From: Spiroplasma helicoides
GTDB taxonomy: Bacteria; Bacillota_I; Bacilli_A; Mycoplasmatales; Mycoplasmataceae
DNA length: 64,000 nucleotides
Direction: 5' to 3'
Assembly (NCBI RefSeq): GCF_001715535.1
Contig: NZ_CP017015.1
Location: forward strand, 496,001-560,000
How positions within the stretch are numbered: the first letter of the stretch is position 1; each line of letters opens with the position of its first letter. Both the position numbers and the translations under genes were made by a program. Below are positions 34,407-53,471 of this stretch, in pieces. Below the pieces are notes generated by a model. The model saw nothing but the letters and a program-made list of their open reading frames with translations, was not told the DNA's origin and ran no database searches.

Positions 34407-37400
34407 ATTATTTGTGGGAACTTTTTTTATTGAAGGAGTTTTAGATAATAATAAATTAAATGTATTTAGAGCTCCATTGATTTTGTATCCAGCAAACATT
34501 AGTATTAAAGGAAATATTGTAACGATTTCTGATATCAACTATCATGAACCTCAATTAAATAACTCGATTTTATTATTTATGGCAACTAAAAATAATATTA
34601 ATTGAGAATTTAGTGAACCCGATGAAGATTTTGATCAAAATAAACTAGCTTATGTTTTAAAAATGATTGAAAAAACAGGGTTTCTTGTCAATAAAGATTC
34701 ACAACAAAATTTTGATATTAATAAATTAGAACAAGCCACTCATTACACAAAAGAAGAGTTACATAATTATTTTAATAGTGTAAATAAAATTGATAAAAAT
34801 GAAGTTAGCTTAAAAAACTACATTTCTTTTGGTTTGTATGATATTGCATCATCTTCAATTTTATCTGCTTATAATACAATTGAAGATAATGATCGTTCTG
34901 ATTTTATTTCTGAAATAATTGCTTCAGAACAAAGTTCAATGATTGAACCTGATGTTGATTGAAGCGAAAAAGAAATTGTACAAATTTCAGATTTAGATGT
35001 TACTCAAAAAACCGCAATTGCAAATTCTTTATCAAGAAGTCAATTTATTTGAGGTCCACCAGGTACAGGAAAATCAGAAACAATTGTCAACCTATTGGCA
35101 AATATTATTTTTAGAAATCAAAGAGCATTATTTATTACAGAAAAAAAAGTTGCATCTGATGTTGTTTATGATAGAATGAAAGACTTAAAAGACTTTTGTT
35201 TGATGTTATTTCATAAAACTGAAGGAGTGCAATTTCATGAACAAGTTAAAAAAATTCATAACAAAATTCAAGAAGAGATTGATAAACAAAACAATCATCT
35301 AAGTAATTCTAATCTTAATTTTCAAAATTATGGAGAAAAAATTGATAGTTATATTGATTTAGCAAAAGAATATAAAAATCATTTCACAATCTATACTGGT
35401 AAGTATTATTTACTAAGTGTACAACATTTAAAAAATAAGATTGAGAAATTTAGTTTTGAAAATAAATTTGTAATGACAATGGATAGTTATGAATGTTTTG
35501 AAGAATTACAATCATTAAATGATAAAAAGTTAAGCGATAAGTTTAATATTATTTTAGAATTATTTAAAGATCTTGATATTAAAAAAATTTGAGAAAAACG
35601 ACAATATTTAGAAATTTATAACGATGATTACAAGAGAAAAGTTTTTTACTTTAATCACTATACAAAGCAAAAATATAAAACTAAGCTGGGAATTTTCGCT
35701 AAAAAGAAATATGAGCAATTTTTAAGTACTCAAATTCAAAATACTAATTATGAAAGTTTTTGTGAAGTTATCAATTTTATTGATAATATTACTTTTAGCC
35801 TAATTTTTAAAATGTTATATTGTTTAACAAATCAACTGAGTCAACCTTTGATTAACTATAATTTTGATTATTTATGTGCTATGTATATCAATGATCATAA
35901 GAAAAGATTTGCAAGAGTTTTAAATAATGCAAATTCGTGAATTGATGCTATTCGTGAAACTTCAAAAAATAGATTTTTAAATGATTTGAAACTAATTTAT
36001 CAAACTCATTTAGAGCAAATTGCATTTAAAATTAAGCAAAGTAGTGAAAAGGGTTATGAAGGAGTTGCCTATGCTAAACTATTTAGAAATTTAGGTAATG
36101 CTATTGGAATTAGAAAACAAATTAGATTGACAACATATTTTAAAAATTACATTGATTTATTAAAATTAATGTTTCCAATTATTATTACTAACCCAAATAA
36201 TGCTGCTAACAATAATTTTTTAAAGCTTGTTGAAAAAGAATTTGATTTTACAATTTTTGATGAAGCTTCTCAAATATTTGTTGAAAAATGTATTCCAGCT
36301 TTATATAGAGCTAAAAATTATATTATTGTTGGAGATGATAAACAATTACCACCAACTAATTTTTTTAGCGATAAATTAAATAGTGATGAAATTGATATTG
36401 AACAAATATATCAAGATCCTGAAGAGCAAAACTTCATTAATACTGAAAGCTTAATTGATTTTGCAAATTCACGATATCCTAAAAACATGCTTCAATATCA
36501 CTATCGAAGTTTTTATACTGAATTAATAAACTTTTCAAACGCTAAATATTATGAATCTAAATTATTAGTTGTCAATAAAAATCAGAGAAGTTTTTTACCA
36601 ATTGAAGTTATTTCAACTTCTGGTAATTTTGAAGATGGAGTCAATGTTAAAGAAGCGCATATTGTTGTTAAATTAATTTTAGAGTTACTAAAAGATCAAT
36701 TGTATCAAAATAAAACAATTGGAGTAATCACATTTAACTCACAACAAAAAAAATTAATTGACTCTTTAATAGAAAAAGAAGCAGAACATTCAACTAGTTT
36801 ACAAAATATCTTAAATTTACAAAAAGGTGAGGAATTGTTTGTTAAAAACATTGAAAATGTCCAAGGAGATGAACGAGACATTATCATTTTTTCAATTGCT
36901 TTTGCCCCAAAAAATGATGGTAAATTCATTAATAACTATGGTCCACTAAATAATGAGGGTGGAGAAAGACGTCTAAATGTTGCAATTACAAGAGCTAAAG
37001 AAAAAATGATTATTGTAAAATCTATTCATTCGTCAGTTATGAATCCAAATAAAAAAGGAGCAATCGATCTAAGAGACTTTTTATACTACTCTGAACTTTT
37101 ACAAAATAAAGAAACTGTTGAGCAAGCAAGTCAAACAATCTTAAAAAATAATTACAATGATCAAGAATTTCAATTAGAACAATTTGACTCAGATTTTGAG
37201 GTCGAAGTTTTTAACGAACTGCAAAGATTAATAGCTCCATACTCAAATAGATATGAATTGAGAAATCAAACAAAAACTGCTGGTTATAGAATTGATATTA
37301 CAGTTTTAGATAAAGAAAAAAATGAGTATGTTCTAGCAATTGAATGTGATGGTTATAAATATCATTCCTCAGATTTTGATAGAAAAAAAGATATTGATCG

Positions 37401-37653
37401 CCAATATTATTTAGAAAAAAGAGGGTGAAAATTTGCAAGAATTTTATCAACTGATTGATGGAGTAAAGATAAAACAAAAAGAAATGAATTTTTAGAAAAG
37501 GTTATGAGTTATTTAAAATAAAAAAAATTTGGCAAACTTTTGAATAACTTTACGATGATATAAAAGGAAAAAAAATAATTTTATTAATATAAAATTATTT
37601 TTATTGTTATCTCTATTAAAATAACAATATATTTCGAAAAAGAGGTGGGAGTT

Positions 37654-41928: not shown

Positions 41929-43764
41929 ATGCTTAAAATAATGTCTTTTAACTGATATAGAAATTTAAAAAATCCGGTGTTTATTAGTACATTATCACTA
42001 GCTTTTTTAGCAATTTTTATATCTTTTGGTGTTCTTGTTGGTCTTTCTAATAACGATATTACAACAATAATAACATCAACAACTGCTGTAATTATGCTTG
42101 CTTGACTAACAATAATTTGTTATATAAATTTTATATTCATTTCAAATGCAATGATATTAGATTCTAGTAGTGGTTTATTAAATTTAGAGTTATCAAAAGG
42201 TTATAGTTACAATGAGTTATTGATGTATAAATTACTTGCAAATAAAATAGTTACTATTGGATTTAATGCTATATTGCTAATTTTGATGTTTTTAGTATTA
42301 GAGATTGTTCAACCGATAAATATTGACTATTTTGAAAAATGTACTTTAATTGGTTATTTATCATTTTTTGCGTTTGATTGGCTAACAACAGGAATGTTTA
42401 TCTTTTTTTGCTCATTTAAAAAGCAAAGGCTGGTATTTTATTTGATTTCATCAATAACTTTACTATTTACAATATCAACATTTACTGGTAATGTTCAACA
42501 GCAAGTTGTTGAAAGAAAGTTTCCAATAATTGGTTTTAAAAAAGACTTCTATTTATCTGACTATTATAAAAAACTTGAACAATTATCTTATAGTAGAAAT
42601 GGAATTGTCTATTCTTTAATGAAAAACATGTATACTTTAAATCAAGATTATGGATACACTCTTGATGTTAAAAATACTGCTTCAAATTCATCTTGTTCAT
42701 CATTTGGTTATGAATGTTTATATAACAAGCATTCTTCTGAATATAATCCTGATTATACAGTTCTTTTAGGAAGATATGGTTATATAAGTTACTTAGGTAT
42801 GATGCTTGACTCAGAGTATTTTGTCAATAATAGTCCCACACTAAGTACAAATTATAAATTTAAGCTTATTGATCAGTACAAAGAAAATATAGTTTACAAA
42901 TTTTTGACAAGTACAATAAAACAATCTAACAGCAATAATTTAAACAGTACATATTACTATAAAGTCTCTGATAAAAATATTAGCGGACCTAATCAATTTG
43001 ATGAATATTCAAATTATTTATTACAAGATAGTGTTACTGAAAGTTTAATTAAAGCACTAAACATCAATGAATCTAAAGATAGTATCAAACAAGAAATCGA
43101 TGAATTAAGTCAGCTTTTAAAAAAATACTTTGTAAATATATGAAAAACAAAATTAAATCATCCATATGATGAAGTAATAGACTTACTAGAATGATGAAAT
43201 TTCGATCATTCTTTAATTTCTAATATTAATTTAAAGTTTGCAGATGAAAAAGATATCTACAATAATGCAACTTTAAAAGATGGAAATAGACTATATATGG
43301 CTTTATTATTTGAACTCATAAACAATTATATGCGTGCTGGAAGTAATGGTTTTGGTGAAGACACAAATCAACTATATAATATAATTCAAAAAAATCCATG
43401 AGAATATAGAGTTTGATGAATTAGTAATCCCTTATATTATCCAACTTATTTAATGATGTATAGTAATAAAAATATGAGTTTAGCACAAGAAATGATTTCT
43501 TTTAAATCAAATCTTTGACAAACATTGTCTATTAGAGCAGTTAATTTTGTTAAAAATGAGAATTTTATTCCTGTTAATTATTTCAACACAAACACTGGAG
43601 ATGATAGATTTATGTATAACAAATTAGAAAATATATACCTAAAACAAGTCAATATCAGTCCAAGAATTGTTGAACCAGATTTTATTTATCTGGGATATAT
43701 ATTGTTTGGTGGATTTACAGGATTAATTGGATTTTTAATTTATAGAAAAATAAGTATTATTTAA
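41929..43764 (+). CDS. ABC-2-like permease with large extracytoplasmic domain (paralogue A)
   Basis: 611 residues; GGGAG RBS, ATG 41929. About five N-terminal membrane segments to residue ~190 (ISTLSLAFLAIFISFGVL, then FNAILLILMFLVLEIV), a ~380-residue outside region, and one C-terminal membrane helix with basic end (LIGFLIYRKISII). It matches the protein at 46361 in layout and in motifs such as LGxMLDSEYFxNNS, TLKDGNRLYMALLF and ISNPLYYPTYLMMYSNKN. Followed by a lipoprotein (16 bp) and an ATPase (2 bp), forming one transport operon. The direction of transport and the substrate are unknown. Confidence 0.75.
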
Positions 43765-43779
43765 AAAAGAGGTGATGGT

Positions 43780-45522
43780 ATGAAAAAATTATTATGAAAA
43801 TTAAGTACATGTTTTTCTATTTTGTTAACTCCAGTTCTTTCAATTTCATGTAACTCATCTATAAATGATTATCCTGATTACATGAATCAAAACTCAAACA
43901 GATCAATTATGTCAAAGATAACTGATTATTTTAATAATTCTAAAAAGTTATTCAATAATAAAACAGCTGTTTTAGATGAAATTAAAATATTATTTAAAGA
44001 TAATGAATATATTGTTTTTGATAAAACAAAAACACCTAAGCAAGATGACTATTTGATTGAAATTGAAGACAATCGCATTTTAGAAAAAAATATAATTTTT
44101 AATATATTGATTACTAAAGCATCACCTAAAGACAATAATTATTATTTTGATGAAACTTATTGCCAAAAATCTGAACTAAGCGTCAATAGAAAAGTTGAAG
44201 ACGTTGATGCGGTTCTTATTGATAAAAACGAAATTGCAAATACTCCCGATAGTCCTATAGCATCATTTGTGATTACTAATCTTGATAAACTAGTGGGTGT
44301 GGAATTAGTACCCAAAGTCTCAAATCCATTTTATGGCAAATGAGAATATGATAAAGAACAGAAAAATAAAATCAACATTTCAATGCAACAATTTTCTGGA
44401 AGTGCAAATTTTGAAATATTTAACTTTGATGTTACCGCAAAAAATGCTACAAAAAGTGCAAGTCTTAGAGTTACTAACTTCTATAAGTATCAAAATAGTG
44501 AAATTGTAGTTGATAAAAGTAGTCAAAAAGTAGATTGAGGGCAAAAATTTGCATTTACAATAACTAACTATAAAAAATTAAAAAATGTAAAAGTAAACAG
44601 CTCTAATTATAACTTTCAAGAAAATGTTGTTTATGATCAAAAAACCGGAATAATCACAGGATATGCTTTTGGTCAAAAAGAAAATAATAGTTTTAATGAA
44701 AATACATATGTTACTTTAATTATTAGTGCTGTTGATTTAGAAGATAGAAAGTTAGATACTAGTGTTTATGTAAATATTAATAAATTAAATTTAATAAAAA
44801 ACTTAGATGAAAATCAAAATACCTTAACTTTAGTTAATGGTGTTTATAAAAGTTTTGACATAAATGAAAATGTGTATGATTTAAAATTAACAGACAACAT
44901 TTCTTTAAATGACACATCAAATTATCTTTTTGAAAACGGAAAACAAATAAACAAAAGGTCTTGAACTTTTAGTAATGAAAAAACTCTTAAAGTTCAATCT
45001 TGATGATATGCAAATAGAAAACCTGGGGGTAGATTCACTGGGGAAGCAACTTTTAAAACAATAGTTGATGGCATAACTTTTACAGATAAAATTAAAAATT
45101 ATAGTATTAATATGAGTACATCATATAATAGTGAAGATTACCCAAAAATAAGTGTTTTTGATAATAATTCTGGAGCAAAATTTGAATCATTAGATGAGGA
45201 TAATACATATTTAGATTTTTCGGCTGATTCTGCAAATAATTGTTTTAATTTATATACATCATCATCTTTAATTGCTTTCAAGTTTAATACTGATTGATAT
45301 AGAAGGATTAATGAAATAAAAGAATTTTTAAATGACCCAGAAATAGTTGTTGACTCAATATTTAGCCAAATTACACCAGAACAAAATAAAAAACAATATG
45401 AGTTAGATATTTCAATTGATATAGAAAAACTAAAAATTGCAAAAAGTACAGTAATGCAATACAATATTGGTGAAAGTAATTTAAATGATTTTAAAATAAA
45501 TATTTTTTATAAGGAGGGATAG
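43780..45522 (+). CDS. Lipoprotein of the ABC operon
   Basis: 580 residues with signal MKKLLWKLSTCFSILL...SISC (Cys24), including one TGA Trp. The ectodomain appears built from repeated Ig-like beta segments (FVITNLDKLVGVELV, FTITNYKKLKNVKV). The stop TAG (45520-45522) lies inside the AGGAGGGATAGG that serves the next gene, so translation is coupled to the ATPase. Likely the outside partner of the permease, binding a ligand or assisting export. No family recognised. Confidence 0.78.
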
Positions 45523-45524
45523 GA

Positions 45525-46253
45525 ATGTTTAGAATTGAAGGTGTAACAAAAAAATTCGATAATAACAAAGGAATTTTTGACATCAATATAACTTTTAATG
45601 AAGGAGACATTGTTGGTCTAGTTGGTGATAACGGAGCTGGTAAATCAACTTTACTAAAATGTATGTTCAACAACTATAAAAAAGACTCGGGTCAGTTCTT
45701 ATATAATGATGAAGAAGTGAATAAAGCCATTATGAAACGTTTCTCATTTTTCCCAGATCAAAGTATTTATCCAAAATCTATTTCAATATTTGATTTTTGT
45801 GTATATTCAGGTAAATTATCAGGAATAAAAGCAAAAGAAGCAAAACAAAAAGCTACAAGTTTACTAACTTCTCTTGATTTGATTAGCTATAAGAAAAAAA
45901 CTTTTAAATCATTATCTGCAGGAATGCAAAAAAGGGCATTGCTAGCTATATGTTTAATAAACAATCCTGACATTATTGTTTTAGATGAACCAACAGCTAA
46001 TTTAGATGTTAGTTCAAGAATTGAGTTTGTAGCTTTATTACAAAAATTAGCAAGAATGGGTAAAACAATTTTAATAACAAGTCATATTATTGATGAATTA
46101 CAGAAGTTCATTAATAAACTTGTAATTATCAATGAAGGTGAAGTTGTTTTTGATCGCTACTTAACTCCAGAAGATAATATAGCGAGAATATACTTTAACT
46201 TAACAAGTAACACAAGAACAAGTAAAATTAAAATTGATGAGTTAATTAAATAA
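45525..46253 (+). CDS. ABC transporter ATP-binding protein
   Basis: 242 residues. Walker A GDNGAGKST near residues 36-44, signature LSAGMQKRALLA near 134, Walker B IIVLDEPTANLD near 156, switch His in ITSHIIDEL. All catalytic residues are intact. This is the CcmA/NatA-like subfamily that pairs with ABC-2 permeases. It presumably powers the permease at 41929 and perhaps also the paralogue at 46361, which has no ATPase of its own next to it. A strong terminator follows at once. Confidence 0.92.
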   Translation: MFRIEGVTKKFDNNKGIFDINITFNEGDIVGLVGDNGAGKSTLLKCMFNNYKKDSGQFLYNDEEVNKAIMKRFSFFPDQSIYPKSISIFDFCVYSGKLSGIKAKEAKQKATSLLTSLDLISYKKKTFKSLSAGMQKRALLAICLINNPDIIVLDEPTANLDVSSRIEFVALLQKLARMGKTILITSHIIDELQKFINKLVIINEGEVVFDRYLTPEDNIARIYFNLTSNTRTSKIKIDELIK

Positions 46254-46281
46254 AAAAGACAAACTAAGTTTGTCTTTTTTA
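46252..46281 (+). terminator. Rho-independent terminator
   Basis: AAAAAAGACAAAC / GTTTGTCTTTTTT stem with a 3-base loop overlapping the ATPase stop codon, ending in a T run. Confidence 0.85.
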
Positions 46282-46360
46282 TTAAACTATTTTAAAGGAA
46301 AATAAACAAACTCACATATAATAAAAATATATAAAATAAATTTTAGAAAGGTAAATATCA

Positions 46361-48205
46361 ATGAATAAAATATTAGCATTTCATTTAAAAAGAACTCTTA
46401 AAGATAAATTATTTATTGGTATTGTTTTATCGGTTTCGATTGTTATGATATGTGTAATACTTTGAATGTGTATCATTACTAGTCAAGCCGTTTATACAAT
46501 TTATGTATGAGGTCCGCTTTTAATAGTTTTTTGAATTCTAAATATTTGTTACATAAATTTAGTATGTATATCAAACGCAATGGTTGAAGATAGACATAAT
46601 GGTATTTTAGATCTTGAAATATCAAAAGGGTATAATCATGGAAGCATTTTAGTATGTAAGTTGATAACATCTAAAATTATTAGCATTTCATATAATGTAA
46701 TTATGATTGGTTTTTTTTATCTTAATTTATTAATTATGCAACCAGATAGCAAATATTTTTTTGAAAATGTATTGTTTTACGGCTTTTTATCATTTTTTGC
46801 TCTTGATTGATTAACTATGGGTATATTTGTTTTATTTAGCTCTTTTAAAATATCTAGAATTGTATTTTGTTTAGCGGGTATTTACACAGGATTAATGTCG
46901 TTATCGCCAATTTTGGGAGGTGTTCAACAAACATTTTCAAGAAATAAGTTTCAAGGAATTAATGAATCAAGAACGACACTATCTGCACAATATTTTCAAA
47001 TATTGCTTGATTTTGCAAATTCACAAAAAGGAATATTAAATAAGTTACTCAATAATATGTATACTTTAAACGATGATTATCGTTATGATCTCAAATGAAA
47101 AACTAATAGCAAAAATAATGATTGTTTATCTTCTGGATATATATGCCTTTACAACTCATACTACAAGGGTGAAGAATTTACTGAATCTGTTAGTAGGTAT
47201 GGTAAAATTGCTTCTTTGGGGTTGATGCTTGATTCAGAATATTTTTTAAATAATAGTAAATCATCAAATTCAAACTATGAATTTAAATTGTTTGATAGTT
47301 ATAAACAAAATATTGTTTACAAATTTTTAAAAAGTTCACTAAAAGAGTCAAAAGCAGATAACTTAACAAGTACTTACTTCTATAAAAGGTCGCAAAAAAA
47401 TATAACAGGGAGTAATCAATATAATGATTATTGCAAATATATTATTCAAGATAATGTAGTTAATAATATTATTAGTTCATTAAACTTAGAGGCTACAAAA
47501 GACCAAGTTATAAATGAGATTAAAACTCTAAATGATATTTTGTACTATTATTATCAAGATTTTTGAGTTGTAAATGATAATCGATTTTTAGATATGGATA
47601 ATAAAAATTGACAATTAATATTTCGTAATTTTAATAATAACTCTACTATAGATAACTCTACAAAGATGTTGTTTGTTTCAGAAAGAGACTTGTATGATAA
47701 TGCTTTATTAAAAGATGGTAATCGACTATATATGGCTCTATTATTTGATATGATTGATAATTTGATGTATTATCCAGATTTTATTATTAATGGTGGTATA
47801 TTTTTTGGCTATGATTATGAAACATATCAAAAAAATCCTGGTTCATATAGACAATATTTTTTAAGTAATCCGTTATATTTTCAAACATTTATGCTGATGT
47901 ATACAAATAAAAATCAATCATTAAAAGAAAATAAATTTGCAATGCAACTTTCACCTTTTGATCATTTACCACTAAAAATAGTGAAATATGAGAAAAATGA
48001 AAACTATGAATATATTGATTTATATAACTGAAAATTTGGAGAAAAAAATACATTATATAATAAGTATGAAAATATAGGTATAAAAAATGTTTTTGTAACA
48101 GAAAATGTTATTAATGTTGATTATGTGTATATAGGATATTTTGTTTTAGGAGTTTTATTTTTAACTGCTGGATATTTAATTTATAGAAAACTAACATTAA
48201 TTTAA
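46361..48205 (+). CDS. ABC-2-like permease with large extracytoplasmic domain (paralogue B)
   Basis: 614 residues; GAAAGG RBS, ATG 46361. Same architecture as the gene at 41929: about five membrane segments to residue ~180, a long outside domain with LGLMLDSEYFLNNS, LLKDGNRLYMALLF and LSNPLYFQTFMLMYTNKN, and a final membrane helix ending in AGYLIYRKLTLI. Many TGA Trp codons. Separated from the ATPase by a terminator, so it has its own promoter. Clearly a duplication of the first permease. Confidence 0.75.
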
Positions 48206-48333: not shown

Positions 48334-49119
48334 ATGAGACTTAATAAGATATTAATTGCAACGAAGCAAAACTTTTTAAAAAACTGATCATTATTTTTAG
48401 TTATTGGATGTGGAAATATATTTTTAACTTTACTTTCAGTTGTGTCTTCTTCTTCAGCAGCAAATATTTTTGAAGGATCATCTTTTTATGAGCAATTCGT
48501 TGGTACTTACATTGAAGTGTTTGAGGGGATAACATTTGCATTTTATATTTTGTTTTCTTTGGTTTTAAGTTATCGTATTTATTATTTAGGATTTAAAAAA
48601 AATACACATCGGTATTTTCTGGTTTGTGGATTAAATAGAAATGAGATTTATTTTTCAAACAGAGTATTAATATTTTTAGGAATCATAGTTTTATACTTAA
48701 TTAATCAAATTTTGTATGGTTTACTCTTTGTTTATTATGATAATGTTTTAGATTATAAAATGAGTTATAAAGATGATTTATTTTTAAGTTTTAATTATTT
48801 TATTGAAGCATTATTGTTTGCAACATTATTTATAATTTTCTATAGTTTGTTTGTTAAAATGAGAAATAAAAAACTTTTATATTTTTTTCTTGTTATATTT
48901 TATGTTTATATTTGATTTATGGTGGTGAGCTTATCGTATTCTGCATTACCAGATGTAGATATTCATAAATCATTTTATTCATTTATACCGCTTACATTCT
49001 CAAAAATAACATCAAACTATGAAGGTGTTTATAAATTTATAAACTTGATTTATTTTATTGTTTTATTTCCAATTTTCACTTATTTTGAATATTTATTATC
49101 TAAAAAATATAATTATTAG
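48334..49119 (+). CDS. Small ABC permease (first of three related ones)
   Basis: 261 residues, AAGGAAAAAGG RBS, ATG 48334. About six membrane segments. Its C-terminal section NYEGVYKFINLIYFIVLFP is shared with the permeases at 50512 and 51292. A KNTHRYFLVCGLNRNEIYF loop resembles the permease loop before the coupling helix. Followed 21 bp later by the first ATPase of the cluster. Three or so TGA Trp codons. Confidence 0.72.
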
Positions 49120-49140
49120 ATTTTGAAAGGTGTGTTACTT

Positions 49141-49824
49141 ATGCTTGAAATAATTAATTTGACTAAAATGTTTGATAAACATAGTGGTATAAAAGATGTA
49201 AACTTAAAACTTGATAAGGGTGTTTATGGATTACTTGGTAAAAACGGAAGTGGTAAATCAACGCTTTTAAAATTAATAGCAAGTATAATTCATTATAAAA
49301 AAGGAGACATTGTTATAAATGGGTTAAGTAATAAAAATAATAAGTTTGATTTAAAAAATATTGCATATATTAGTGCAGAACAAGATTTACCCATGCAATT
49401 ATCAATTCAAAAGTTTTTTAAATTTGTAAGAGAATTTAATGATGATATAAAAGATACATTTGATGAAGTGGCAGCAGCTCTTAACTTTGACATAAATTCC
49501 ACAAAACTAATAAGTCAACTATCAACAGGAATGCTACAAAAATTAAAGATTTGTATAGCTTTTGGTTATCCTAGAGAAATATATTTATTAGATGAAATAA
49601 CTTTGGGTTTAGATCCTGTATCAACAGATCAAATAATTTCATTTATCAAAAATTTTTCAAAAGACGCCTTAGTAATCTATAGTTCTCATAAATTAGAAGA
49701 AGTTGAGGCACTATGTAGTAAAGCAATTGTTTTAAGAAATAATAAAGTAGAGACCATTTTTAATGTTGATGAAAACAGTGAAGTTATAACAAATTACCGT
49801 AAAGTTTTTAAAAGAGAGGAGTAA
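49141..49824 (+). CDS. ABC transporter ATP-binding protein (cluster ATPase 1)
   Basis: 227 residues. ATG 49141 is preferred over an upstream in-frame TTG because GAAAGGTG lies before it. Walker A GKNGSGKST, signature LSTGMLQKLKI, Walker B IYLLDEITLGLDP and switch His in YSSHKLEEV are intact. The LSTGM signature and compact size recall ATPases of lantibiotic/antimicrobial-peptide exporters and NatA types. Very close to ATPase 2 just downstream (4 bp). Confidence 0.9.
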   Translation: MLEIINLTKMFDKHSGIKDVNLKLDKGVYGLLGKNGSGKSTLLKLIASIIHYKKGDIVINGLSNKNNKFDLKNIAYISAEQDLPMQLSIQKFFKFVREFNDDIKDTFDEVAAALNFDINSTKLISQLSTGMLQKLKICIAFGYPREIYLLDEITLGLDPVSTDQIISFIKNFSKDALVIYSSHKLEEVEALCSKAIVLRNNKVETIFNVDENSEVITNYRKVFKREE

Positions 49825-49828
49825 ATAT

Positions 49829-50500
49829 ATGATCAAAATAGAAAATCTTTCAAAAATGTTTGATGATATTAGTGGAGTTAAAAATATTACATACAATTTT
49901 GAAAAGGGTTTTTATGGATTACTTGGAAAAAATGGTAGTGGAAAATCAACTTTGTTAAAACTAATATCTGGAATAACTTTTTATAACGATGGAAAAATAA
50001 TTATAAATGATTTAAACAATAAAGAAAATAATTTTAATCTAGAAAGAATTGCATTAGTTAGTGGTGATAAAGATTTACCTGAAACTATAAAAGTTTTTGA
50101 AGTATTTAAATTAGCTAGATTTATAAATAAAGATAGAAAAGATGACTTTGATAAAATTTCAGATTTGCTAGACATAGATATTCATTCAAAAAAGTATATA
50201 AAAGAGCTAAGCACTGGAATGTATCAAAAAATAAAATTATGTTTAGCATTTGGTTATCAAAGAGATATATATTTGTTAGATGAAATTACATTAGGATTGG
50301 ATCCTATTAGTTGTGAAGATATTATAAGTTTTATTAAAAATAATTTGCAAGATAAGTTAATTATTTTTTCATCACATAAGTTAGAAGAAATAAGAGATTT
50401 ATGTAATGAAGTTATTGTTTTAAATAATAATAGAATAGAAAAAGTATTTAAAGTTAAAGATAGTCAAGTTTTTGAAAAATACGCAGAACTATACAAATAA
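49829..50500 (+). CDS. ABC transporter ATP-binding protein (cluster ATPase 2)
   Basis: 223 residues. RBS GAGAGGAG overlaps the end of the preceding gene. Walker A GKNGSGKST, signature LSTGMYQKIKL, Walker B IYLLDEITLGLDP and His in FSSHKLEEI. Nearly parallel to ATPase 1 along the length, so a recent tandem duplicate; the two may form a heterodimer or serve different permeases among the three in this cluster. Confidence 0.9.
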   Translation: MIKIENLSKMFDDISGVKNITYNFEKGFYGLLGKNGSGKSTLLKLISGITFYNDGKIIINDLNNKENNFNLERIALVSGDKDLPETIKVFEVFKLARFINKDRKDDFDKISDLLDIDIHSKKYIKELSTGMYQKIKLCLAFGYQRDIYLLDEITLGLDPISCEDIISFIKNNLQDKLIIFSSHKLEEIRDLCNEVIVLNNNRIEKVFKVKDSQVFEKYAELYK

Positions 50501-50511
50501 TAGGGGGAATT

Positions 50512-51276
50512 ATGACAAAAAATATTAGATTAAAAAGATTAACATTTAAAAACTTTCTTTCTTTTTTATTGATATTTTTTGTAGTTTACTTTGTAAAAAC
50601 TGTAATTATTGCAATATCATCGCATAGTTATGTAAGTGGTAGTAATGATAATATATATACAACTAATTTAGTTATAACCATGTTAGATTTATTATTTAGT
50701 TATTTTTTAACAATATTTATTCCATTTTTATATTTGATATTGAATACTATAAATTTTAAAAATAGGTTAATAATATTTCTTGGTATTAGTAGAAAGCAAT
50801 TATTTTGATCTAATTTATTAAATTACTTTGCTTATTGTTTTTTAACTTTGTTATTAAATTTCTTTTATCTTTTTATCTTTTTCATTATTAGTAAAAATAA
50901 AGTTTTTGTAAATGAGTATTTTATTTTAAATTTAAATTTATTTATTTATGCTGCTTTTGTAGGTGTTTTATTTTACAACATATTTTATCTTTATTATAGA
51001 ATGAAAAGTAGATTTTGAGCTAAAGCAATTTTATGTTTAATAATTTTATTACATGTTGTTGCATTTTTCGTTCAAATAACTTTAGTTATGTTTTCATCAG
51101 CTAAAAATAAATTTACATTTAATTTTAACTATTTTTCATTGCTTATCTTATTTTGTTCTCATATATCAGTTTGTTATAATGGTTTTTATAAATATATAAA
51201 CATAATTTATGGTTTGATCTCGATTCCACCATTATCTTATTTGTTGTATAAAAACTTTAATAAACTAAATTTTTAA
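50512..51276 (+). CDS. Small ABC permease (second of three)
   Basis: 254 residues, RBS TAGGGGGA, ATG 50512. Six membrane segments. Contains FLGISRKQLFWSNLL, equivalent to the LLGVTKKEIATISF of the next gene, and the C-terminal VCYNGFYKYINIIYGLISI shared by the trio. Two TGA Trp codons. 11 bp after ATPase 2. Confidence 0.75.
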
Positions 51277-51291
51277 AGAAAGGGAAAAACT

Positions 51292-52044
51292 GTGAAAACT
51301 TTACAAAAAAAATTATATCTAATACAAAAAAAATTACTTATTTTATTAATGACTTTTTTTGTGATATTTTTTATAAAAGATTTGACTCTATATAGCATTT
51401 TTGAATTAATAGGATTTCATAATACTGGTGGTTTTTATTTAACTTATTCTATTGTTAATTATGCAGTTTATCTGTTCGCAGCTTTTTTCTCTGCATATTA
51501 TTTTTATTATTATTTAATAGTTACAAATTACAATAGAATGTTAATGTTATTGGGTGTTACCAAAAAAGAAATAGCAACTATTAGTTTTATAAGTTTTATT
51601 ATATTTCATTTAACAATTCTATGTTTGGGTTTATTTTCTAATTATGTTTTTTACATTATTTTTAAAGAAAACGATTTCATAACAAACTATATGTTTTTAG
51701 GTTTTAATATATTCATCTTAACTTTTGCTTTATCGGGAATTTTTGGTTTAATAAATTTATCAATAATAAACTATACTGGTAGTAGAAATAAAAACTTATT
51801 TATATGATTGGAATTAATTTTTATAATTATTATTTATATTATTTTTTTTATTGTTATATCATTTGATTCAGCCAAATCTTTTATTAATATAAATAATTAT
51901 TATTCATTTGTTATATTTATATATTCTTTTTTAACTTTCTTATATAATGGTTTTTACAAATATGTGAATATAATTTATAGTTTATTAGTTCTTATTCCTA
52001 CTTTAACATATTTATTTTTAAGAGCAAAGATAATTAGTTATTAA
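51292..52044 (+). CDS. Small ABC permease (third of three)
   Basis: 250 residues. Starts with GTG 51292 after AAAGAAAGGG; no ATG lies in a usable place. Six membrane segments, motif LLGVTKKEIATI and C-terminal LYNGFYKYVNIIYSLLVL align with the previous gene. One TGA Trp. Last gene of the + strand cluster, ending in a terminator that also faces the opposing operon. Confidence 0.75.
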
Positions 52045-52075: not shown

Positions 52076-52813
52076 TTAATCTCATTTGAAATATTTTATA
52101 GCTAAAAAAGCAAATAATGCTGTATAAATAATCGATGTAACATAAACTCACCATATCTGAGTTGTATCTAAACCATTTGCAATATACTCCATAAGTAAAA
52201 CAGCGTTTCCTGTTGGTAAAATATATTGAAAGTATTTAAATCAAACATCATTAGTATCAATAGCTAAACCTGGAACTGTTGCACCTGAGAAAAATAAGCT
52301 TATCATTAAAATAAAAAATGACATTGAAGTAATAAAGTTAATTGATTTACCAAAGTTAGCCATTGTAACAGACATCATAAAATGAACTATAAAAATAGGA
52401 ATTGGTAAAAACAACAAAGTTGAAATCATAGTTGCTGAAGTACTTAAATTAAATGCTGCAATTGCTGTGATTAAACAAATCATAAATTCAACAAAATACA
52501 TTGTGTAATATGTAGCCACTAAAGAAAATATATATTTTAATTTAGTAATATTTGCTAATGCTATTATTTTTATTCTTTTGTCAATTCTGTTGGCGCACAT
52601 TGTTATTGGTATTGATGATATTGAAAAGGACAATATAGCCATAATTGATAATGGGGGGAATAAATAATTCATTAGTAATGACCCTTGAACATCTTCTTTT
52701 CCTCAAACCATACCATAAATTATTGTTCATGAAATTGGAAATCCAAAACCAAAAACGATGCCAAAAGGGTTTTTAGCATATTTTATAAACTCTTGTTTAA
52801 TTATCTGTAGCAT
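52076..52813 (-). CDS. ABC-2-type permease
   Basis: 245 residues, ATG 52813, AGAGG RBS. Starts MLQIIKQEFIKYAKNPFGIV and has six membrane segments with the ABC-2 style CANRIDKRIKIIALAN loop and FSGATVPGLAI near TM5. The start codon lies 17 bp inside the upstream ATPase gene, so translation is coupled. Several TGA Trp codons. Probably an exporter (drug, bacteriocin or lipid) together with its ATPase. Confidence 0.85.
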
Positions 52814-53471
52814 AAACAACCTCTTTTTCTAAAATATCTAAATTTTTTTTAAAGTCATCAGTTAAATTTAGATCATTTACTATTGAACCATTATCTAAAA
52901 GAATAACACGGTTACAAATTTTAGCGATTTCGTTGACATCGTGAGAAACCAATAAAACTGTTGTTGGGTTATTTTTAACATAGTCAATAATAATTTTGTG
53001 AATCTTTTCTCTTCACACATAATCTAGAGAAGTTGTTAACTCATCTAATAATAATAAATTAGGTCTATTTATAAATGCTACTAATAGTTTAAATTTTTGT
53101 TTTTGCCCACCTGATAGTCTATTAAATCTTTTACGTTTCAAATTTTCTAGATCAAACCTTTTAAAAAGTTCATCAGTATCCTCTTTTGATTTAAAAAGAC
53201 CTTTATAAAATTTAACTATTGATTTTAAACTCAAATCAGGTTCAAACTGACATTCTTGAAAAACAGCATTTTTAGATATATTTTCAATTTCTAGTTTTAT
53301 TTCACCGCTACTTTGTTTTTTAGAACCCATAATAATTTCTGATAAAGTTGTTTTACCAGAACCGTTTTGGCCCATTATTCCTAAGCACTGATTTGATTCA
53401 ATCTTTAAATTACTAATATTTAAAACTTCATTTTTGCTATATGATTTTTTTAAATTAATAATTTCTATCAT
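52797..53471 (-). CDS. ABC transporter ATP-binding protein
   Basis: 224 residues. Walker A GQNGSGKTT, Q-loop FQECQ, signature LSGGQKQKFKLL, Walker B LLLLDELTTSLD, switch His in LVSHDVNEI. Intact in all motifs. Overlaps the permease start by 17 bp. Paralogous to the frameshifted ATPase gene just upstream (53520-54187). A TGA Trp lies just after Walker B. Confidence 0.92.

What the first reader, a model, noticed from the sequence alone, without database searches (positions are those of the whole stretch)
41929..48205. Unplaced ABC-2-like permease family with a ~380-residue outside domain and dedicated lipoprotein
Two paralogues share layout and motifs (LDSEYFxNNS, LKDGNRLYMALLF) but match no family I recognise. 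One sits with a lipoprotein and an ATPase; the other has none. A permease with such a large ectodomain plus a lipoprotein could be an export or surface-assembly machine.
Basis: partly seen in the sequence, partly recalled or inferred. Interest (0 to 1): 0.55.

Follow-up and report, generated by a model that had tools for sequence, protein, structure and literature searches.

The report
Spiroplasma exporter with giant outside domain
A horsefly-associated Spiroplasma carries several copies of a membrane pump of the common ABC-2 type that has grown an unusually large domain outside the cell and sits in gene clusters with surface proteins; the pump type is known, the outside domain and its partners are not.

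Summary
The four genes are real (code 4): permease 41929-43764, lipoprotein 43780-45522, ABC ATPase 45525-46253, permease 46361-48205. The permeases are 41% identical: 5 TM, a ~386-390-residue ectodomain, 1 TM. Neither matches a curated family alone, but a 28-member profile puts the membrane part in the ABC-2 exporter superfamily (PmtD-like; PF12679-type by profile-profile). The ectodomain, between TM5 and TM6, matched nothing tested. The profile matched 35 of 248 genomes of the order (34 in the window's own family) and, in the phylum, 30 of 295, all in that family; 61 of 67 architecture-bearing members lie within two genes of an ABC ATPase, and exported surface proteins are enriched nearby. 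Best reading: an ABC-2 extruder whose ectodomain docks a surface (lipo)protein and which expels an amphipathic peptide or lipid, LanFEG/LanI- or Pmt-like in composition. Substrate is inferred, not shown. A new, lineage-restricted variant of a known kind. Side finding: the genome's other two copies flank a DRT3 reverse-transcriptase pair.

The parts
41929..43764 (+). Permease 1 (P0001, 611 aa, code 4): ABC-2-type membrane domain, TM1-5 at about residues 13-187 and TM6 at about 585-605
42505..43662 (+). Ectodomain of permease 1, residues 193-578; two cysteines (C256, C263) invariant in the 5 closest members
43780..45522 (+). Surface lipoprotein (P0002, 580 aa), lipobox cysteine 24; hydropathy periodicity favours beta structure; paralogous family
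45525..46253 (+). ABC ATPase (P0003, 242 aa), Walker A, signature, Walker B and H-loop motifs readable in the sequence; best NCBIfam models LanF-like, GldA, DrrA, all under cut-off
46249..46283 (+). Terminator-like hairpin overlapping the ATPase stop codon
   Evidence: (2 found in region, shuffles 0.4 +/- 0.7)
46361..48205 (+). Permease 2 (P0004, 614 aa, code 4), same layout, sister of permease 1 in the tree
46931..48100 (+). Ectodomain of permease 2, residues 191-580

Best explanation
A type-V (ABC-2) ABC exporter of the PF12679/PmtD kind in which the loop between TM5 and TM6 is replaced by a large ectodomain (316-425 residues in 28 members). The ATPase dimer (P0003) drives a pair of permeases (P0001 and/or P0004); the ectodomains cap the outer mouth and dock a surface protein, here the lipoprotein P0002. 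Most likely it moves an amphipathic molecule (peptide or lipid) out of the membrane, with the lipoprotein as outer binder or acceptor, as LanFEG/LanI and Pmt do (recalled). Shown: ABC-2 membrane part by profile, layout by hydropathy, ATPase partnership, recurrence next to exported proteins. Inferred: complex formation, direction, substrate.
For: A profile of 28 members finds PmtD chains as its top four PDB hits (E 0.012-0.015) over TM1-5, with the segment between TM2 and TM3 (D-x3-G-x3-LE...K) aligned to the same place in PmtD. One of 28 members hits PF12679 at 1.1e-5 and two hit PF01061, best 0.0029. Profile-profile of the ectodomain-excised family against six PF12679-type permeases of these genomes: 95.7, 94.7, 94.1, 83.5, 58 and 40% probability, against 0.9% or less for 9 other polytopic proteins. 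ATPase within two genes for 61 of 67 members, directly beside for 54. Two permeases to one ATPase recurs in several operons. Exported proteins within two genes 34 of 67 versus 47 of 204, Fisher p 4.7e-5. The ATPase's best NCBIfam model is the lantibiotic-protection subunit, 7.9e-38, though far under its cut-off.
Against: P0001 and P0004 alone match no ABC-2 model, and the PmtD hit alone is weak; the 11-member profile A1 found nothing in PDB. Five ABC-2-like or small permeases, among them the window's own PF01061-positive 52076-52819, gave under 1% in hhalign. The two copies at G000:C1:1138387-1145839 have no ATPase within two genes. Ectodomain charge is not special, so no support for binding cationic peptides. 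LanC is absent from the genome. No usable structure model.
Confidence: 0.45

Rival explanations
1. Post-Sec surface-assembly machine: the ABC module does not transport a small substrate but uses ATP to act, through the ectodomain, on the neighbouring Sec-exported protein (fold it, release it, or build a surface layer), as MacB/FtsEX/Lol-type machines transmit force.
For: Exported neighbours of at least three families that are not close relatives recur beside the permease. A secreted, unlipidated protein family (type A) sits beside permease or ATPase in 10 of 36 cases and beside a lipoprotein in 15 of 36, with only 1 having both, as if permease and lipoprotein were interchangeable partners.
Against: MacB/FtsX/Lol topology (4 TM, ectodomain between TM1 and TM2; recalled) is not seen; the TM part is ABC-2. 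Of 20 loci fetched through type A alone, none has a permease directly beside it and one has it nearby, and the window's genome has no type A at all. The 10 of 36 count is biased because many loci were chosen around permeases.
Confidence: 0.27
2. Immunity pump: it protects the cell against membrane-active bacteriocins or host antimicrobial peptides, its own secreted neighbour being the toxin in some genomes (lactococcin-972-like arrangement, recalled).
For: Gene content (lipoprotein + ATPase + two permeases) equals LanI + LanFEG (recalled); the ATPase scores best to the lantibiotic-protection model and also to the lactococcin-972 ABC model. S. helicoides was isolated from a horsefly gut (PMC5073277, abstract in the listing).
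Against: All those ATPase scores are below the curated cut-offs; no NCBIfam immunity model hits the permeases; no LanC in the genome; ectodomain charge ordinary.
Confidence: 0.2
3. Decaying locus without conserved function: tandem duplicates drifting.
For: Some relatives carry broken or split copies (G019, G031, G045). Copy number varies between genomes.
Against: In the window all four frames are intact, ATPase motifs are readable, and full-length members persist across many genera of the family.
Confidence: 0.08

Closest known systems
PmtD (phenol-soluble modulin exporter permease, PDB 9q2n, 6xjh)
   Same: TM1-5 align including the TM2-TM3 segment; ABC-2 permease with separate ATPase
   Different: The PmtD chains are ~250 aa without room for such an ectodomain; sequence match is weak (E 0.012)
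PF12679 ABC2_membrane_2 permeases
   Same: Profile-profile probability up to 95.7% with PF12679 permeases of related genomes
   Different: Window members do not reach the Pfam model on their own; those permeases are ~300 aa and lack the large TM5-TM6 domain
LanFEG + LanI lantibiotic immunity (recalled)
   Same: One ATPase, two permeases, one lipoprotein; ATPase best model is the lantibiotic-protection subunit
   Different: LanE/G are short and lack ectodomains (recalled); ATPase under cut-off; no LanC
ABCA and PDR/ABCG exporters (topologies recalled)
   Same: ABC-2 fold with big outer domains; the ATPase's best PDB hits are ABCA4/3/1
   Different: ABCA domain lies between TM1 and TM2; ABCG's TM5-TM6 loop is much smaller; ATPase fused

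Membership tests
ABC-2 (type V) exporter permease | Six TM helices, N and C ends inside | tested here: met
   Kyte-Doolittle 5+1 TM; K/R cluster in the predicted inside loops and C-terminus (read). No experimental topology.
ABC-2 (type V) exporter permease | Sequence or profile match to ABC-2 models | tested here: met
   Met for the family as a profile, not for P0001/P0004 alone
ABC-2 (type V) exporter permease | Cognate ABC ATPase encoded alongside | tested here: met
   61 of 67 within two genes; P0003 in the window
ABC-2 (type V) exporter permease | ABC-2 fold | tested here: inconclusive
   AlphaFold model from 2 sequences, mean pLDDT 35; no fold search was run on it
LanFEG/LanI immunity | ATPase over the curated cut-off of the lantibiotic-protection model | tested here: not met
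   130.4 bits against cut-off 309.75
LanFEG/LanI immunity | Two permeases, one ATPase, one lipoprotein together | tested here: met
   41929-48205
LanFEG/LanI immunity | Lanthionine biosynthesis (LanC) in the genome | tested here: not met
   PF05147 0 of 1; not needed for orphan immunity
MacB/FtsX/LolC-E (topology recalled) | Four TM with ectodomain between TM1 and TM2 | tested here: not met
   Ectodomain lies between TM5 and TM6
Lactococcin-972 immunity membrane protein | Match to an NCBIfam model of that kind | tested here: not met
   No such model among the 2 weak hits of P0001 or the 0 of P0004

The most novel reading that the evidence does not exclude
In Spiroplasma and kin a modular surface system exists in which Sec-secreted, unlipidated proteins with a shared ~200-residue C-terminal domain (ending near AYATAWNAYWAR) are paired interchangeably with either a lipoprotein or an ectodomain-bearing ABC-2 machine; the ABC-2 ectodomain is the ATP-driven counterpart of the lipoprotein anchor, and the window's cluster is a version where a lipoprotein and two such machines are combined.
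Probability: 0.15. Interest if true: 0.7.

Novelty: new variant of a known kind. Interest (0 to 1): 0.42.

Why it matters
A wall-less lineage has taken an ordinary ABC-2 exporter and expanded it with a large TM5-TM6 ectodomain of no recognised family, in several copies in some genomes (five found in G003, the most the search scored), tied to exported surface proteins. If the ectodomain docks those proteins, this is a new way of coupling ATP hydrolysis to the bacterial surface in host-associated mollicutes, and a defined target for structure work.

Tried and rejected
Dedicated lipoprotein: rejected, P0002 has a paralogue at G000:C1:462768-464444 and relatives in arrays of G008 and G013 (3 of 60 genomes positive, own included). 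Type-A protein as the permease's exclusive partner: tested by fetching 20 loci found through type A alone; permease directly beside it in none, a few genes away in 1 (L123), so rejected as exclusive. Partner lipoproteins as soluble copies of the ectodomain: rejected, hhalign under 1% for 15 of 15. Ectodomain or lipoprotein relatives in PDB: none at E 10. Peptide binding by acidic charge: ectodomain charge is like that of other exported ORFs. LanC: absent. Genome-contig scans with A3 and A4 and a viral-contig scan with A3 gave no relatives. AlphaFold with the two window permeases failed; the second fold job and the fold searches were not used. Promoter calls are no more than shuffles give. Gene-neighbour controls come from the same fetched loci, so they are not random genome samples; control genes were chosen at least 4 genes away from any permease or ATPase, so the 0 of 204 ATPase figure is by construction.

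Papers: only search listings were seen; passages of PMC5073277 and PMC13174585; the abstract of PMC6486257 in a listing. Topologies and gene content of LanFEG, MacB, FtsX, Lol, ABCA, ABCG and lactococcin-972 systems are recalled.
Full report
What is there. Under code 4 the window carries permease 1 (41929-43764, 611 aa), a lipoprotein (43780-45522, 580 aa), an ABC ATPase (45525-46253, 242 aa) and permease 2 (46361-48205, 614 aa), all on the + strand. Gaps are 15, 2 and 107 bp. A 16-pair hairpin with a T-rich 3' arm overlaps the ATPase stop (46249-46283; 2 terminator-like sites found in the region against 0.4 +/- 0.7 in shuffles). So the first three genes look like one operon and permease 2 like a unit of its own just behind it.

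Where it is. The window lies in a single-contig genome of 1,326,546 bases. That is exactly the chromosome length given for Spiroplasma helicoides TABS-2 in PMC5073277 (passage seen), so I take it to be that organism; the identity is inferred from length alone. G037's contig (1,336,077 bases) has the length given for S. alleghenense in the abstract of PMC6486257.

Family. The genome holds four full-length copies: two in the window and two at C1:1138387-1145839. In the tree the window pair are sisters, the other pair are sisters, and the G008 copy, which sits as permease-lipoprotein-ATPase, is their outgroup. The 28-member profile A2 matches 35 of 248 genomes of the order, 34 of them in the window's own taxonomic family and one partial match in another family, and 30 of 295 genomes of the phylum, all 30 in the window's family. 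With P0001 alone it was 18 of 99 relatives. Absence is common too: in the window's genus 4 of 20 genomes had no match (G005, G009, G013, G014). One search scored at most five candidates per genome, so copy numbers are lower bounds.

Neighbourhoods. From 54 sources (window and 53 fetched loci) I took 81 proteins that match the permease profile or have the layout; 67 show 5 TM, a long gap and 1 TM by hydropathy, the other 14 being fragments or hydropathy misses. Six of the 67 were taken on layout only, with no profile match. Of the 67, 54 are directly beside a same-strand ABC ATPase and 61 within two genes (53 and 60 with a stricter operon rule). Even larger ectodomains exist: 717- and 870-aa proteins in an ATPase-permease-ATPase-permease cluster at G000:C1:114.3-120.5 kb. 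Exported proteins (signal-like N-terminus, no later TM) lie within two genes of 34 of 67 permeases and of 47 of 204 control genes (p 4.7e-5), and directly beside 21 of 67 versus 34 of 204 (p 0.014).

Placement of the membrane part. No Pfam, NCBIfam or PADLOC model recognises P0001 or P0004 (two weak unrelated NCBIfam hits to P0001). The family profile does better: its top four PDB hits are PmtD chains (E 0.012-0.015), aligned over TM1-5 with the TM2-TM3 segment in register; one of 28 members hits PF12679 at 1.1e-5 and two hit PF01061, best 0.0029. The narrower 11-member profile A1 found nothing in PDB. In profile-profile comparison of the ectodomain-excised family, six PF12679-type permeases scored 40-95.7% (five checked in Pfam, two of them under Pfam's cut-off; the sixth rests on the hit, also under the cut-off), five other small or ABC-2-like permeases scored under 1%, and nine other polytopic proteins scored 0.9% or less; seven further 'controls' proved to be family members and are not counted (stopped by its time limit after 15 of 60 planned controls). 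I conclude ABC-2, PF12679/PmtD side, with high but not complete confidence.

The ectodomain. It lies between TM5 and TM6, is less conserved than the membrane part (mean pairwise identity 0.24 versus 0.32 in 11 members), carries a CX6C cysteine pair invariant in the five closest members, and has weak helical periodicity, whereas the lipoprotein's favours beta. It matches nothing convincing in Pfam or PDB.

The lipoprotein. P0002 is a member of a paralogous family: one other copy in the genome (E 2.6e-31), four matches in G008, two in G013, none in the rest (3 of 60 genomes positive). It has no convincing Pfam or PDB relatives.

Other partners. In nine other genomes (G003, G015, G030, G036, G037, G042, G043, G050, G052) the exported gene beside or near the permease/ATPase belongs to a different family, unrelated to P0002 (hhalign 1.2%), whose C-terminal ~200 residues are shared (group-to-group E 1e-14 to 1e-41; the single L079 sequence is weaker, 4e-8 and 4e-4, against two of the groups). 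Of 41 listed genomic places that reach the end of its model (position 373 or later), 11 lie within 1 kb of a permease match, 10 on the same strand (counted by eye from the listings, and one search did not list its weakest matches). The model was built mostly from permease neighbours, so this is biased. The fairer test went against exclusivity: of 20 loci found through this family alone none has a permease directly beside it, one has it nearby. Instead the family often sits beside a lipoprotein: 15 of 36 against 58 of 584 background genes (p 2e-6), and 10 of 36 beside permease or ATPase, 1 of them both, 12 neither; 36 of 36 lack a lipobox. That suggests, without proving, that lipoprotein and ectodomain permease play similar roles.

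Mechanism. I commit to an ABC-2 extruder with an outer docking domain and a surface-protein partner (0.45). The assembly machine (0.27) and the immunity pump (0.20) remain open; the last is a special case of the first. What would settle it is structure plus deletion.

Novelty. The engine is known; I found no description of the ectodomain variant and its partnership in the papers I could search (listings only).

Noticed in passing
L005:8354-11870 (G000:C1:1140353-1143869), minus strand: The other two permease copies (56% identical) flank two reverse transcriptases: 661 aa best PADLOC model Drt3b (7.3e-40) and 521 aa best Drt3a (2.9e-27), both with YVDD, overlapping by 35 bp: a DRT3-like defence pair in Spiroplasma. 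The Drt3b-like protein was found in 1 of 60 genomes (own only). A hairpin follows the upstream permease.
   Followed up: partly
L033:11098-12639, L035:10708-12264, L048:9621-10748, L044:7839-9104, L106:7730-8926 and others: Family of signal-peptide, unlipidated proteins with a conserved C-terminal domain ending near AYATAWNAYWAR, paired with either a lipoprotein or the ectodomain permease.
   Followed up: partly
L061:7800-14033 (G000:C1:114299-120532): ATPase-permease-ATPase-permease cluster with still larger ectodomains (717 and 870 aa proteins), same layout but not hit by the permease profile.
   Followed up: no
window 48334-52044: Next cluster: three small permease-like proteins (250-261 aa) without Pfam match and two ABC ATPases.
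   Followed up: no
window 34414-37521: 1035-aa helicase (AAA_11/AAA_12) ending in an REase_MTES_1575 nuclease domain.
   Followed up: no
L060:391-12130 (G000:C1:454.9-466.6 kb): Tandem array of lipoproteins that includes a P0002 paralogue; similar arrays in G008 (L062) and G013 (L063, L064).
   Followed up: partly
L074, L075, L076 (G016, G012, G006): Conserved operon: lipoprotein ~559-572 aa, permease, two small exported proteins (~156 and ~121-130 aa), permease, ATPase, small lipoprotein ~150 aa.
   Followed up: no
G045:C1:784838-785402: Broken remnants of a type-A gene and a permease still side by side on one strand.
   Followed up: no
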